Virus record (IMG/VR): IMGVR_UViG_3300035661_000012
Coordinates: 1-64,000 of that record
From: a virus
DNA length: 64,000 bases
Reading direction: 5' to 3' (one strand)
The position numbers were made by a program, and so were the translations under genes. The notes beneath the pieces are model-generated. The model was not told the DNA's origin, did no database searches, and was given only the letters and a program-made list of their open reading frames with translations. Below, piece by piece: positions 1 through 3,174 of this stretch; within the stretch, counting starts at the first letter, position 1; every line of letters starts with the position of its first letter.

Positions 1-752
1 GTACTCATCCGCCAAGGATCATATACTGCAGGTAGCGGATTTCTATTTGTTGCCCGCAGTATTTCGTATTTCAAAGGATTCATTTTCTCTTCTTCAATTG
101 TGGGTAATCCTTTCAAACCCCACAATTGAGCCAACGTTTCAACACAAATCATTACTTCGCGATCATCTACTTCGACATCGCCACCACTACCAACAGATGT
201 GGCCGATGACTTGTGTTGTTTGTTGACCAATTGAAGTTTTGCATCGGGATGTTCGTCAAGATATCTCTTGTAGCTATCCCGATAATACTTCTTTTCGCGT
301 CTTTCCTTTTTCTTCTTATTGAAAGAGTAAGACGCAACCTCTTTCATCATGGCCTTTTGAACCTTTTGATAATTCTGGGCATCTTTACGTCCAGATTTAT
401 CTTTCGGTTCTGAAGATTTACCTTCTTCCTTGCCGTTACGTTTTTCTTGATGAGCAACGCTATCTCCTCCGTGAGAGTCGTCGCTCATCTTATCAACAGC
501 GTCTCTTACTTCTGCTTCTATTTCATGGAGACGCTTTTTGTTAATCTTGAATAATTGGCCATTTCCCAATTTAAGCGCCTCATCCATTGTGATGCGCTTT
601 GGTGGCCAATTGTTTGTATCCCAAGGACTGTATTTATTGGCACCATTGATTTCGCTCAAGATGCCATCCTTTTTATCCGGCATATACTTATACAAGTATG
701 GTTTGCCAGACTTATCCCTTAGGATAAACAGAATTTCAAAATTCGTTTTCAT
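1..752 (-). CDS. Lysine-rich protein next to a MoxR-like ATPase (C-terminus outside window)
   Basis: The minus-strand frame is open from an ATG at 752 to the left edge, about 250 codons without a stop, with a purine-rich ribosome binding site (AAGGAAGGAAAG) just upstream. The protein begins MKTNFEILFILRDKSGKPYL. Residues of roughly 95-180 are very rich in Lys, Glu, Asp and Ser and look disordered, followed by a more ordered stretch containing LWGLKGLPTIEEEKM. It lies 77 nt downstream of the AAA+ ATPase gene on the same strand, with a tRNA-like element (777-822) in the gap. MoxR-type ATPases are commonly encoded beside a von Willebrand A (VWA) partner whose N-terminal half is charged and variable; that identity is an inference from position only, because the VWA part, if any, would be beyond the window. 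Confidence 0.75.
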   Translation of the reverse strand, partial: MKTNFEILFILRDKSGKPYLYKYMPDKKDGILSEINGANKYSPWDTNNWPPKRITMDEALKLGNGQLFKINKKRLHEIEAEVRDAVDKMSDDSHGGDSVAHQEKRNGKEEGKSSEPKDKSGRKDAQNYQKVQKAMMKEVASYSFNKKKKERREKKYYRDSYKRYLDEHPDAKLQLVNKQHKSSATSVGSGGDVEVDDREVMICVETLAQLWGLKGLPTIEEEKMNPLKYEILRATNRNPLPAVYDPWRMS

Positions 753-776: not shown

Positions 777-822
777 TTCCCGCGCCCGACTCGAACGGGC
801 CGATGGCCTACCATGGTGGGAA
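777..822 (-). ncRNA. tRNA-like mini-element TLS1 in the 5' leader of the gene at 752
   Basis: Read on the minus strand (822 to 777) this folds as a reduced tRNA. A 7-nt acceptor-like strand TTCCCAC pairs with GCGGGAA (6 of 7 pairs, one A-C mismatch). A 4-bp arm ATGG/CCAT carries loop TAGG, and a 5-bp T-stem GCCCG/CGGGC carries the 7-nt T-loop TTCGAGT. There is no D arm, no normal anticodon loop and no encoded CCA. It sits between the ATPase stop (829) and the ribosome binding site of the next gene. An element with the same length and geometry occurs at 2101-2146. The fold is read directly; function (RNase P/Z processing site, 5'-UTR regulator or tRNA remnant) is unknown. Confidence 0.6.
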
Positions 823-828
823 AAGGCG

Positions 829-1554
829 TTAGCAATATTCTGCTTTCAACGCCTTATAGACGTTGAATCTGCAGATCATCTGCATTTTTGCCTTTAATGT
901 AGAAGGATTGCTGGTATCCTTCCACAGACTGGTCCAGAAAGCAGACTCTGGAAGCCCACTCTGGATCAGTTTTATCAACGTTGCCATCTCTATCGCAGAT
1001 GGCGCCCTAAAAGCGTCATCAGCGCGAAGCGATGACAAGATATTCTTTACTACATTCTTGTATTCTAGCCCAGCATGCTGAAATACAAGTCGATCAGTCT
1101 CTACGCTGTAGTCGACGTAGAGTCTGATTGTAAACCTTCTAAGGGTTTCCTCCCGCAACGTTCTACGGTTATTAGAGGTTGCGAGGAAGATTATATTTTC
1201 TGGGTGGTACTCGATTGTCCTACCCATGATTTCGATTTGGTTATCCTCGAGTAGAGGTAACAATAAATCCTCCACTCTGGAACGGCTTTTGTCGATCTCG
1301 TCCAAGAGGATGATTACTTTCTCTTGGCGAGATTTCTCCAATCCCTTTGTTAGGGGAGTTGGGAAAACTTGCAAATTACTTTCCATTACGGTCCACCCAA
1401 AGAATAATTCTTCGGGGGTAAGACTGTCCGTAATGGACATTTTAAATATCTGGCAATTGAACTTATCTGCCAGTCTCTTAGCAGTATAAGTCTTGCCAGA
1501 TCCGGGAGGACCCCATAAAAGGGCTTTCATCCCGAAATTGATTATATTGATCAT
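829..1554 (-). CDS. MoxR-like AAA+ ATPase
   Basis: A 241-residue AAA+ ATPase of the MoxR/AAA_5 type. Walker A GPPGSGKT is at residues 15-22, Walker B IILLDEID at about 81-88 with D85 and E86, sensor-1 asparagines at about 128-129 (TSNNR), and an arginine-finger-like RR at 139-140. The length equals little more than the core ATPase module, as usual for phage MoxR proteins. These ATPases remodel partner proteins, often with a VWA-domain partner encoded next door; the lysine-rich gene downstream is the candidate. The start ATG at 1554 follows AAGGAAT at a suitable distance. The gene is preceded by a long hairpin-rich non-coding leader, and its G+C content is clearly higher than that of the late genes (27 of 60 bases in the line at 1201). 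Confidence 0.88.
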   Translation of the reverse strand: MINIINFGMKALLWGPPGSGKTYTAKRLADKFNCQIFKMSITDSLTPEELFFGWTVMESNLQVFPTPLTKGLEKSRQEKVIILLDEIDKSRSRVEDLLLPLLEDNQIEIMGRTIEYHPENIIFLATSNNRRTLREETLRRFTIRLYVDYSVETDRLVFQHAGLEYKNVVKNILSSLRADDAFRAPSAIEMATLIKLIQSGLPESAFWTSLWKDTSNPSTLKAKMQMICRFNVYKALKAEYC

Positions 1555-1609
1555 TTTTTATTCCTTATCTTTTATCCGCCGCCGATTCTCCCGCTTGGCG
1601 CGGTTTACT

Positions 1610-1640
1610 GCATCAATAAGCACCTAAATCTTATTGATGC
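1610..1640. repeat. 11-bp inverted repeat upstream of the ATPase start
   Basis: GCATCAATAAG (1610-1620) and CTTATTGATGC (1630-1640) are perfect complements around a 9-nt loop. It lies 56 nt upstream of the ATPase ATG on the minus strand. No T-run follows on either side, so it is more likely a leader RNA hairpin or a protein-binding dyad than an intrinsic terminator. Confidence 0.6.
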
Positions 1641-1795
1641 CCTATAGCTTTAGAGCGGTTATCTACACGACTTGATGCCCGCTCTTGGGAGCACCTTTAT
1701 GGCCATCATATTCGTCAAAACCCTATATCAGCAGCCCAAGAACCTACAAAATACTACCGATATCTGGTACATGCCAGACGAATACTCATCTTCGC

Positions 1796-2043
1796 TCAGC
1801 TATGAAATCGCGAAGATGACGACCAGTCATAGTCACCATAGAGATATCCTTCAATAATATCCATAATAAAGCCATAGCTCTTCTTATGGCATTCAGAAAT
1901 GGGATATCCCCGTTGTTCACCTGCCCAGCGTAGAGGAGTTAAGTCGTGTTACCTTCCTCTATCAACTGCTATGTCAGCAAACAATACATAGTTCCGTTGT
2001 TTAAAGTGGTAAACGGCACCACTGGGTGGTTTTAAGGACTCAT
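1796..2043 (-). pseudogene. Possible interrupted small ORF downstream of tRNA-like element 2
   Basis: On the minus strand a good Shine-Dalgarno sequence (TAAGGAG) precedes ATG at 2043, but the frame stops after three codons (ATG AGT CCT TAA). Two nucleotides further into the next frame (from 2032) a protein-like frame runs 27 codons (KPPSGAVYHFKQRN...) to a TAA at 1951-1949. It then stays open for 50 more codons in the same frame (HDLTPLRWAGEQRGYPISEC...) to TGA at 1798-1796. The TPLRWAGE stretch vaguely resembles an ankyrin repeat. The in-frame TAA lies in the loop of a 7-bp hairpin (TAGAGGA/TCCTCTA). It may be a decayed gene with a frameshift and a nonsense mutation, or chance. Confidence 0.3.
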
Positions 2044-2100
2044 GATTCTTCTCCTTACTTTTTGTTGTCAATCGAACACGTACAATTACGCATTCTTGAG

Positions 2101-2146
2101 TTCCCATGCCCGACTCGAACGGGCTGCCATCCTGATGGGATGGGAA
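2101..2146 (-). ncRNA. tRNA-like mini-element TLS2
   Basis: Read on the minus strand (2146 to 2101), TTCCCAT pairs with ATGGGAA over 7 of 7 positions. A 4-bp arm CCAT/ATGG carries loop CAGG, and a T-arm GCCCG-TTCGAGT-CGGGC completes the fold. The linkers are 1 nt before and 2 nt after the middle arm, exactly as in the copy at 777-822, and the total length is again 46 nt. The middle stem and acceptor position 7 differ between the copies by compensatory changes, which supports a conserved RNA fold rather than a copied DNA stretch. It lies upstream of a Shine-Dalgarno/ATG at 2043, paralleling the first copy. A complete tRNA is not present. Confidence 0.6.
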
Positions 2147-2300
2147 TCGGCATTTTTTATTCTCTTGCCAGGAGATCGACCCCTACTAAGGACACATCGT
2201 ACGATGTACGACCTGTTGAACTCGAGGTTCAATTGGTTACCATGGTTTATTTTTAACGTGAGCCTTATACACACGGGCTTGCAGATGAATAGAAATAAAT

Positions 2301-2328
2301 GATACAATTATAAGCCAATAATTGTATC
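2301..2328. repeat. 11-bp inverted repeat
   Basis: GATACAATTAT (2301-2311) and ATAATTGTATC (2318-2328) are perfect complements separated by 6 nt. It is part of the chain of hairpins between the ATPase gene and the phased repeat array. Confidence 0.6.
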
Positions 2329-2680
2329 TGAACTTTCCCGCACATACACAACATCATGCTGATAATATGCGGGAAGAAAAAAATGGGGAAAACAGTCCAA
2401 ACCAGCTCTCTTTTATTCGGCTGAGAGCCCCACCTATCTGTATGCTGATCTAAGAGAAATATCTCTTAGTTTTATTGGCTTAAATCCATTCGTAAATAGA
2501 TATAAGCGCATACACAAATTCTGAGGAATCGTCGATGAAACAGCGGCCAACTTCTTAGTCAGATGTTGGCAAATATCGAGAGTAAATTGATCCCTCATTC
2601 ACTGAAGTTATCTCGTTGATTAAAAAGGAGGGTGGCTCGAAACAAATTCTTTCAAACCACCTAACCTTATATATCACCCA

Positions 2681-2958
2681 GTATCTCGCTCTCTGTGCTA
2701 AGGTTTTATTTTCAGTCAGTCGCTCTCTATTCTAAGGTCACGCTTCAGTCAGTCGCTCTCTATTCTAGAGCTGTATCTTAGCCTGTTGCTCTCACTTCTT
2801 CAGTCCGTCGATCTCTATTCTAAGGTCTCGCCTTAGTCTATAGATCTCTGCTCATCAGTCAGTCGATCTCTGTTCTAAGGTTTTATTTTTTAGTATCTCG
2901 CTCTCTATGCTAGAGTTGTATTTTGGTCTGTCAGTATCTCGCTCTCTATGCTAATAGC
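2681..2958. repeat. Nine-copy helically phased short repeat array (iteron-like)
   Basis: Nine related units occur on the plus strand with consensus (c)agt(c/a)(a/t)(g/c)tcg(c/a)tctctattcta(a/g)(g), starting near 2681, 2713, 2746, 2778 (degenerate), 2801, 2833 (degenerate), 2856, 2892 and 2932. The core CGMTCTCT or its equivalent begins at 2687, 2721, 2754, 2787, 2809, 2842, 2864, 2899 and 2940. The steps are therefore 34, 33, 33, 22, 33, 22, 35 and 41 nt, mostly two or three turns of DNA. Units are separated by short unrelated AT-rich stretches. The array lies at the divergent junction between minus-strand and plus-strand genes. Such arrays are typical of initiator or regulator binding sites; no CRISPR-type spacers or cas genes are present. 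Confidence 0.75.
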
Positions 2959-2972
2959 ACCCCCAGGGGGCT
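2956..2972. repeat. G+C-rich inverted repeat at the composition boundary
   Basis: AGC-A-CCCCC and GGGGG-CT form a compact inverted repeat immediately after the last unit of the phased array. Sequence to the left averages clearly higher G+C, and sequence to the right is AT-rich. No T-run follows on the plus strand, so it is not a standard terminator. Confidence 0.5.
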
Positions 2973-3174
2973 CGAGAGAAATTAAAAGGATTTGTTAAAA
3001 ATTGATGAGGGCAGAAATTATAAAATAAAAAAAACCGCCGAATATATATCTTTTATCCGCTAAATCCCTAAATATAAGTAATAAATAACCTTGATAAATC
3101 GATTTTTATCACTTCCAGCTTGATTTACTCAATCCACACTAAGATGTTACGGCAGTAAATAATTTGGCATTAGT
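2973..3174 (+). promoter_or_regulatory. AT-rich leader of the rightward late operon
   Basis: About 200 bp with no ORF. It contains the bipartite promoter-like motif (3097-3125) and a 13-nt sequence ATCTTTTATCCGC (3048-3060) that is repeated exactly at 1567-1579, next to the ATPase ribosome binding site. On the minus strand a TATAAT-like hexamer occurs near 3020, which could serve leftward transcription, but its -35 match is weak. Confidence 0.45.
3097..3125 (+). promoter_or_regulatory. Bipartite promoter-like motif, site 1
   Basis: AATCGATTTT starts at 3097 and TTGATT starts exactly 23 nt later at 3120; the first gene of the rightward operon starts at 3175. The same two blocks with identical register occur at 46718 and 52523, each in a rare intergenic gap, while the sequence between the blocks is unrelated. 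This is not a canonical sigma-70 -35/-10 pair, so a phage-modified or phage-encoded polymerase is a reasonable inference. Confidence 0.6.

What the first reader, a model, noticed from the sequence alone, without database searches (positions are those of the whole stretch)
777..2146. Two 46-nt tRNA-like mini-elements with identical geometry and compensatory changes
The minus-strand sequences 822-777 and 2146-2101 share 7-nt acceptor strands, a 1-nt linker, a 4-bp arm with a YAGG loop, a 2-nt linker, and a 5-bp T-arm with a TTCGAGT loop. The middle arm is ATGG/CCAT in one and CCAT/ATGG in the other, and acceptor pair 7 is C-G versus T-A; only one mismatch (A-C, in the first copy) occurs. Both lie upstream of a Shine-Dalgarno sequence and ATG. 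An acceptor/T-arm minihelix is the minimal known substrate of RNase P, so these could be processing or regulatory signals of mRNA leaders. I know of no described element with this form, but I cannot search.
Basis: partly seen in the sequence, partly recalled or inferred. Interest (0 to 1): 0.75.

Follow-up and report, generated by a model that had tools for sequence, protein, structure and literature searches.

The report
Anticodon-less mini-tRNA elements between phage genes
This phage carries, between its genes, short RNA elements that look like a tRNA with the anticodon arm removed, and the same element recurs in unrelated actinobacterial phages and integrated mobile elements, probably as a place where the host's tRNA-processing enzymes cut the messenger RNA.

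Summary
Both 46-nt elements exist as described. The same 154-kb phage record holds two more 47-nt copies, plus one tRNA-derived relative with an encoded CCA, all on one strand and intergenic. A structural scan and a covariance model then found the same geometry in unrelated viral contigs and in about 6% of sampled genomes of one actinobacterial order (0 of 301 in another phylum). Form: 6-bp acceptor, single C, 4-bp arm with a loop ending GG, 2 nt, 5-bp T-arm with loop TTCGAGT, acceptor, then purine-C. Over 52 distinct copies 99.1% of pair cells pair, with 162 double-change cells against 38.5±5.3 in shuffles. No Rfam family reaches its gathering score. Copies carry the tRNA-elbow residues and often sit just after a stop codon. 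In chromosomes 22 of 32 are followed by an rRNA-leader (boxA/nut-like) motif. Best reading: a cis-acting tRNA mimic cut by host RNase P, possibly also RNase Z, to process polycistronic mRNA. Structure, family and context are shown here; cleavage is inferred. Caveats: most copies have 11 stacked base pairs, one short of tRNA; one window copy has a better competing fold; there are no transcript data.

The parts
777..822 (-). Mini-tRNA-like element 1 (46 nt). Acceptor 822-816 with 783-777 (one A-C mismatch); linker C 815; middle arm 814-811 with 806-803, loop TAGG 810-807; linker 802-801; T-arm 800-796 with 788-784, loop TTCGAGT 795-789; then A-C reading of the family end at 777-776.
   Evidence: sequence; covariation; R2 55.8 bits
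2101..2146 (-). Mini-tRNA-like element 2 (46 nt). Acceptor 2146-2140 with 2107-2101; linker C 2139; middle arm 2138-2135 with 2130-2127, loop CAGG; linker 2126-2125; T-arm 2124-2120 with 2112-2108, loop TTCGAGT 2119-2113.
   Evidence: R2 57.4 bits; competing fold
829..1554 (-). AAA+ ATPase gene (241 aa, AAA_5/MoxR-like) whose stop codon lies 6 nt before element 1
   Evidence: Pfam AAA_5 E 1.4e-21
1..751 (-). Gene downstream of element 1, preceded by AAGGAAGG; 395 aa, runs across the record's overlapping ends to genome 153,684; DESGS motif suggests a VWA domain (my reading, no Pfam hit)
2165..2280 (-). Divergent copy of a second structured element (companions A, B, C lie outside the window next to the other mini-elements), just upstream of element 2

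Best explanation
The elements are a family of anticodon-arm-less tRNA mimics made as part of polycistronic transcripts. An acceptor stem stacked on a T-arm, plus a D-like arm whose GG docks into the T-loop, presents a tRNA elbow and acceptor end. Host RNase P would cut at the 5' side of the acceptor, and RNase Z may cut after the purine at position 73. This would separate the upstream message from the downstream one and give the downstream gene its own 5' end. Shown here: the structure (covariation), the elbow and acceptor residues, the recurrence in phages and actinobacterial integrated elements, and the sense-strand intergenic position. Inferred: the tertiary elbow contact, that the elements are cut, by which enzyme, and what the cut does for expression.
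For: Covariation in acceptor and middle arm across 52 distinct copies and in a test not selected for pairing: 23 of 25 T-arm sites have an acceptor partner against 6.4 expected, 14 the full geometry against 0.125. tRNA hallmarks beyond pairing: loop ending GG 29/30, T-loop TTCRAG, G1-C72 20/30, purine-C after the acceptor 28/30 (GG, T-arm and A/AC were partly imposed by the search patterns, G1-C72 was not). Intercistronic, sense-strand position. Fifth element in the same cluster is a tRNA without anticodon arm and with encoded CCA, weakly matching Rfam tRNA and mascRNA. A twister-like ribozyme match in the same cluster fits a transcript cut at several places. Bacterial RNase P cuts acceptor/T-stem/T-loop model substrates (PMC11143913) and measures from the tRNA elbow, pairing with the 3' end (PMC4919913); MALAT1 and MENbeta transcripts are processed this way in eukaryotes (PMC4919922).
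Against: No transcript or cleavage data. Most copies have an 11-bp acceptor/T stack, one short of tRNA. CCA is encoded in only one compact copy (L101) and in the fifth element. The 2146 copy has a better competing fold. The element is absent from the closest fragments and named relatives tested.
Confidence: 0.55

Rival explanations
1. A tRNA mimic that is not cut but binds a partner that recognises the tRNA elbow or acceptor end (EF-Tu, a tRNA-modifying enzyme, the ribosome's L1 stalk, a phage protein) and so controls translation or stability of the neighbouring message.
For: Elbow residues are conserved; the elbow is read by several unrelated partners (PMC4919913); phage copies often stand 18-57 nt before a start codon.
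Against: Most copies lack CCA; copies also sit directly behind stop codons with no nearby start in chromosomes; no common downstream gene.
Confidence: 0.15
2. Part of an antitermination signal: the element takes the place of the hairpin upstream of boxA in an rRNA-type nut site and helps the transcript through Rho-dependent terminators.
For: 22 of 32 chromosomal copies are followed by TTTGAGAAYTnnAnAGTG, mostly 10 nt downstream; in two carrier genomes the motif otherwise occurs before 16S rRNA and in the 16S-23S spacer.
Against: 0 of 20 viral copies have the motif, yet they keep the same structure; a tRNA elbow is not needed for known nut hairpins (own knowledge).
Confidence: 0.12
3. A passive RNA structure that protects the 3' end of the upstream message or the 5' end of the downstream one from exonucleases.
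For: Compact, GC-rich, placed at gene ends.
Against: A plain hairpin would do; conservation of T-loop, GG and the single C linker is unexplained.
Confidence: 0.12
4. A DNA-level site, such as an integrase attachment site derived from a tRNA gene end.
For: Found in integrated elements of actinobacteria, which often use tRNA genes as attachment sites (own knowledge).
Against: Up to four divergent copies per genome; acceptor and middle arm share no sequence between copies; pairing kept through G-U pairs; lies between protein genes.
Confidence: 0.03

Closest known systems
mascRNA / menRNA (Rfam RF01684)
   Same: tRNA-like structure with a reduced anticodon arm inside a longer transcript; 5' cut by RNase P and 3' cut by RNase Z (PMC4919922)
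   Different: Eukaryotic nuclear RNAs; the mini-elements do not match the model (only the fifth, tRNA-derived element does, at 19.3 bits against 42.5), have no anticodon-like arm at all and lie between phage or mobile-element genes
Synthetic minimal RNase P substrates (acceptor stem, T-stem, T-loop; McClain et al. 1987, cited in PMC11143913)
   Same: Same acceptor/T-arm stack
   Different: Artificial; these are natural, add a D-like arm with GG, and have a 6-bp acceptor in most copies
Canonical tRNA (Rfam RF00005)
   Same: Acceptor, D-like arm with GG, T-arm and T-loop, purine at 73, C at 74
   Different: No anticodon arm, single C instead of U8-A9, 6-bp acceptor, below tRNA detection
tRNA in the 16S-23S spacer of rRNA operons, followed by boxA
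   Same: Chromosomal copies stand just before the motif found at the carriers' own rRNA genes
   Different: Placed between protein genes of integrated elements, no anticodon arm; viral copies lack the motif
Phage RNAs known to be cut by RNase P (C4 antisense RNA of P1/P7, M3 RNA)
   Same: Phage RNAs processed by host RNase P (PMC11143913)
   Different: Not reported with this acceptor/D/T-arm form, as far as I know; no sequence or structure comparison was run

Membership tests
tRNA (RF00005) | anticodon arm with anticodon | tested here: not met
   2 nt between middle arm and T-arm in the compact copies
tRNA (RF00005) | match to the tRNA covariance model or ARAGORN | tested here: not met
   only the fifth element scores 26.1 bits, below gathering 29
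tRNA (RF00005) | T-arm with TTCRANY loop and D-loop GG | tested here: met
tRNA (RF00005) | 7-bp acceptor stem | tested here: inconclusive
   7 bp in this phage's copies (one with a mismatch), 6 bp in most others
mascRNA-menRNA (RF01684) | match to the covariance model | tested here: not met
   no match for the mini-elements even at E up to 10; fifth element 19.3 bits against gathering 42.5
RNase P substrate (works like) | acceptor stem stacked on T-arm with T-loop | tested here: met
   (secondary structure; coaxial stacking itself is inferred)
RNase P substrate (works like) | purine-C at 73-74 that can pair with RNase P RNA | tested here: met
   28 of 30 copies; C75 and A76 mostly absent, and A/AC was partly imposed by search patterns
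RNase P substrate (works like) | cleavage at the 5' side of the acceptor | not testable with these tools
   needs biochemistry or end mapping
RNase Z substrate (works like) | cleavage 3' of the discriminator base | not testable with these tools
   needs biochemistry or end mapping
rRNA-type nut/boxA module | boxA-like motif next to the element | tested here: inconclusive
   22 of 32 chromosomal copies, 0 of 20 viral copies; motif verified beside rRNA genes

The most novel reading that the evidence does not exclude
A previously undescribed, widespread RNA family of phages and actinobacterial integrated elements: an anticodon-arm-less mini-tRNA used as processing punctuation between protein genes, and in the integrated elements combined with an rRNA-type antitermination site so that the module imitates an rRNA-operon spacer.
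Probability: 0.45. Interest if true: 0.82.

Novelty: new variant of a known kind. Interest (0 to 1): 0.72.

Why it matters
tRNA-like elements inside messages are known mainly from eukaryotic long RNAs, organelles and plant RNA viruses. A recurrent, strongly covarying family in phages and mobile elements gives a compact natural substrate with which to test what RNase P and RNase Z need, suggests that mobile elements borrow the host's tRNA-processing machinery to separate genes of one transcript, and supplies a covariance model with which unannotated transcripts can be searched. The pairing with an rRNA-type motif in integrated elements points to mimicry of rRNA-operon control.

Tried and rejected
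1) Folding energy as evidence: uninformative. 2) Relatives by the AAA protein or by TerL alone: none. A TerL alignment gave 80 loci, but 35 of their records searched with R1 and 35 loci searched with R2 have no element; the closest are fragments of 14-81 kb. 3) BLAST of the element against named phages: only T-arm-length matches of no significance. 4) Named Propionibacterium phages related to carrier L112, and Rhodococcus phage REQ3: no element. 5) L241 passed the structural scan but is an ordinary tRNA and was discarded. 6) The first alignment A1 put the gap in the acceptor; it was replaced by A2 with an N in the loop of the 46-nt copies. 7) Viral relatives of the companion A/B/C element: 0. 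8) An actinobacterial carrier locus against plasmids: no match. 9) Nine literature searches found no description of the element; only open-licence papers are held, so a prior description elsewhere is not excluded. 10) Attachment-site idea: rejected because copies differ in acceptor and middle arm. 11) The genome sample overlaps that and is not counted as independent.

Full report
OBSERVATION. The minus-strand sequences 822-777 and 2146-2101 are as described. The window is the first 64,000 bases of a 154,304-bp virus record whose ends overlap by about 185 bp, so the genome is probably circular or circularly permuted. Matches to terminase large subunit, portal and tail sheath make it a myovirus-like phage far from named phages; the best named TerL match is Moorella phage MTATph1 at 33% identity.

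MORE COPIES HERE. Searching the record with the region gave two further hits, and a structural scan of the whole record confirmed four elements of this type. The new ones are minus 153220-153174 and 152674-152628, 47 nt, with 5-nt loops AAAGG and TAAGG. The middle arms are ATGG/CCAT, CCAT/ATGG, CTGG/CCAG and CCAG/CTGG. All four middle-arm pairs change on both sides while 98.4% of cells pair; none of 500 shuffles reaches the covariation score, and slid structures drop to 33-52% paired. A model of these four (R1) finds only them in 39 records, which include 35 records of TerL relatives.

A FIFTH, tRNA-DERIVED RELATIVE. In the same minus-strand cluster, genome 147738-147686 reads GGTTCTG T GGTT AATGGT AGCC TGAAAGA GTGGG TTCGATT CCCAC CTGAATC ACCA: acceptor with one mismatch, D-arm with GG, T-arm and encoded CCA, with 7 nt where the anticodon arm should be. 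Rfam scores it 26.1 bits as tRNA (gathering 29) and 19.3 as mascRNA-menRNA. ARAGORN finds no tRNA in the record. Its tRNA-like fold is not the lowest-energy one.

THE FAMILY. A scan by geometry over all loci then held gave the same form in viral contigs fetched only because they contain CCCGTTCGAGTCGGG. On 3.66 Mb the stricter scan gave 27 hits, 0 in reversed sequence and 0 for five scrambled T-loop motifs; 14 of the 27 have a 1-nt linker, a 4-6-nt loop and a 2-nt linker. One hit (L241) is an ordinary tRNA and was removed. A second model (R2, 14 sequences) puts the tRNA genes tested at 32 bits or less and the compact elements mostly at 47 or more. Together 53 copies, 52 distinct, reach E 1e-5: 99.1% of cells paired, 12 of 15 pairs with changes on both sides, 162 double-change cells against 38.5±5.3 in shuffles. 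That alignment is fitted to the structure, so a less circular test matters: among 25 distinct sites chosen only by T-arm sequence plus AC, 23 have a 6-bp acceptor partner upstream against 6.4 expected, and 14 the full geometry against 0.125. Several of these have much larger middle arms (L108, L034, L228, L222, L036, L217), so the compact form may be one end of a range.

ANATOMY. In 30 hand-checked compact copies the linker is C in 30, the loop ends GG in 29, the T-loop is TTCRAG, the first acceptor pair is G-C in 20, and the two bases after the acceptor are purine-C in 28. Outside this phage the base before the acceptor rarely pairs with the base after it, so the family's acceptor is 6 bp; the outer pair (7 bp) belongs to this phage. 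Part of the conservation of T-arm, GG and A/AC was imposed by search patterns; the acceptor and middle-arm pairing, the single C and G1-C72 were not imposed by the patterns, although the compact copies were picked by pairing.

DISTRIBUTION. In 84,980 prokaryote genomes a strict pattern gave 12 hits; seven fold properly and three more are the second of two tandem copies in Lentzea; all ten are actinobacterial. With R2, 23 of 399 genomes of the Amycolatopsis order have a match (the query genome among them), 3 of 347 across the phylum (again including it), and 0 of 301 in the phylum of a Dehalococcoidia genome. These large scans score only a few candidates per genome, so the counts are lower bounds.

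CONTEXT. Where an upstream ORF was identified, the element usually begins within 30 nt after its stop, and phage copies are mostly followed by a Shine-Dalgarno and start codon (simple ORF calling, noisy at high GC). In this phage the order on the minus strand is: AAA ATPase, element, 395-aa protein, companion element A, 103-aa gene, element and companion B, 123-aa gene, element and companion C, 264-aa gene. Chromosomal copies that were examined follow a gene resembling the SCO3933 regulatory family (E 1e-5 to 2e-11, below the curated cut-off), once with a GntR-type regulator upstream. This suggests actinomycete integrative elements; that label is inference. Of 32 chromosomal copies 22 are followed by TTTGAGAAYTnnAnAGTG or a one-base variant, usually 10 nt downstream; 0 of 20 viral copies are. 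In two carrier genomes this motif otherwise occurs just before 16S rRNA and in the 16S-23S spacer. I recognise it as the actinobacterial boxA/nut region (own knowledge).

MECHANISM. Bacterial RNase P binds the acceptor/T-arm stack and measures from the tRNA elbow (PMC4919913), and it cuts models made of acceptor stem, T-stem and T-loop (PMC11143913). MALAT1 and MENbeta show a tRNA-like structure used to process a long transcript with RNase P and RNase Z (PMC4919922). The placement between genes, the purine-C end, the tRNA-derived fifth element with CCA, and a twister-like ribozyme match in the same cluster fit a transcript that is cut at several places. I put this at 0.55. The weak points are the 11-bp stack in most copies, the missing CCA, a better competing fold for the 2146 copy, and the absence of any transcript data.

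NOVELTY. No Rfam family matches the mini-elements at gathering score, and none relevant appeared at relaxed thresholds. The open literature held here does not describe them. It is a new RNA family that works like known tRNA-like processing signals, so I rate it a new variant of a known kind; it is not filed as a tRNA or as mascRNA, because defining features of both were tested and not met.

Noticed in passing
genome minus 153,668-153,550; 153,175-153,060; 152,628-152,515 (L126); divergent copy in window 2280-2165: A second repeated structured RNA (A, B, C, W) before Shine-Dalgarno sites, next to three of the mini-elements' intergenic regions: a short stem with AGGC in the loop, a TAAAAATAG linker, then CCGAGTTTAACA, a hairpin and GTAGG. 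It resembles the start of a pistol ribozyme, but the likely pseudoknot partner lies 3' of the hairpin. No Rfam match and no viral-contig match to its core.
   Followed up: partly
L126:1322-1271 (genome minus 144,822-144,771): Match to the type-P1 twister ribozyme, 39.9 bits, E 5e-6 but below the gathering score of 67.2; probably a divergent twister.
   Followed up: no
L126:4238-4186 (genome minus 147,738-147,686): tRNA without anticodon arm but with encoded CCA, in an intergenic region of the same cluster.
   Followed up: partly
L402, L353, L354 (L353 and L354 are Lentzea): Two mini-elements in tandem, about 11 nt apart, the second with a weaker acceptor, followed by the rRNA-leader-like motif.
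   Followed up: partly
L346, L343, L347, L400, L401, L407, L409, L412 and others, just downstream of the element: rRNA-leader (boxA/nut-like) motif TTTGAGAAYTnnAnAGTG in integrated elements, a possible antitermination site for their own operon.
   Followed up: partly
L108, L217, L034, L228, L222, L036, L356, L357: Same acceptor and T-arm ends but a much larger middle arm, often with GGAAGG in it.
   Followed up: no
L112, L026, L089, just upstream of the element: A shared hairpin with loop TAGGTC (or TATGTC) inside an outer stem precedes the mini-element in three different contigs (seen by eye).
   Followed up: no
L126:5158-7782 (genome minus 151,282-148,658): 874-aa protein with the motif NVDGDGDGVFG, reminiscent of the metal-binding DxDGD motif of two-barrel RNA polymerases; no Pfam, PHROG, NCBIfam or PDB sequence match.
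   Followed up: partly
window 1560-3170: About 1.6 kb with no long ORF on the minus strand, holding an imperfect 55-bp repeat array at 2743-2881 and four copies of GAGCGACTGACTGA-like sequence.
   Followed up: no
record ends: window 1-185 and genome 154,120-154,304: The ends overlap by about 185 bp with few differences, so the 395-aa gene downstream of element 1 is continuous across them.
   Followed up: yes
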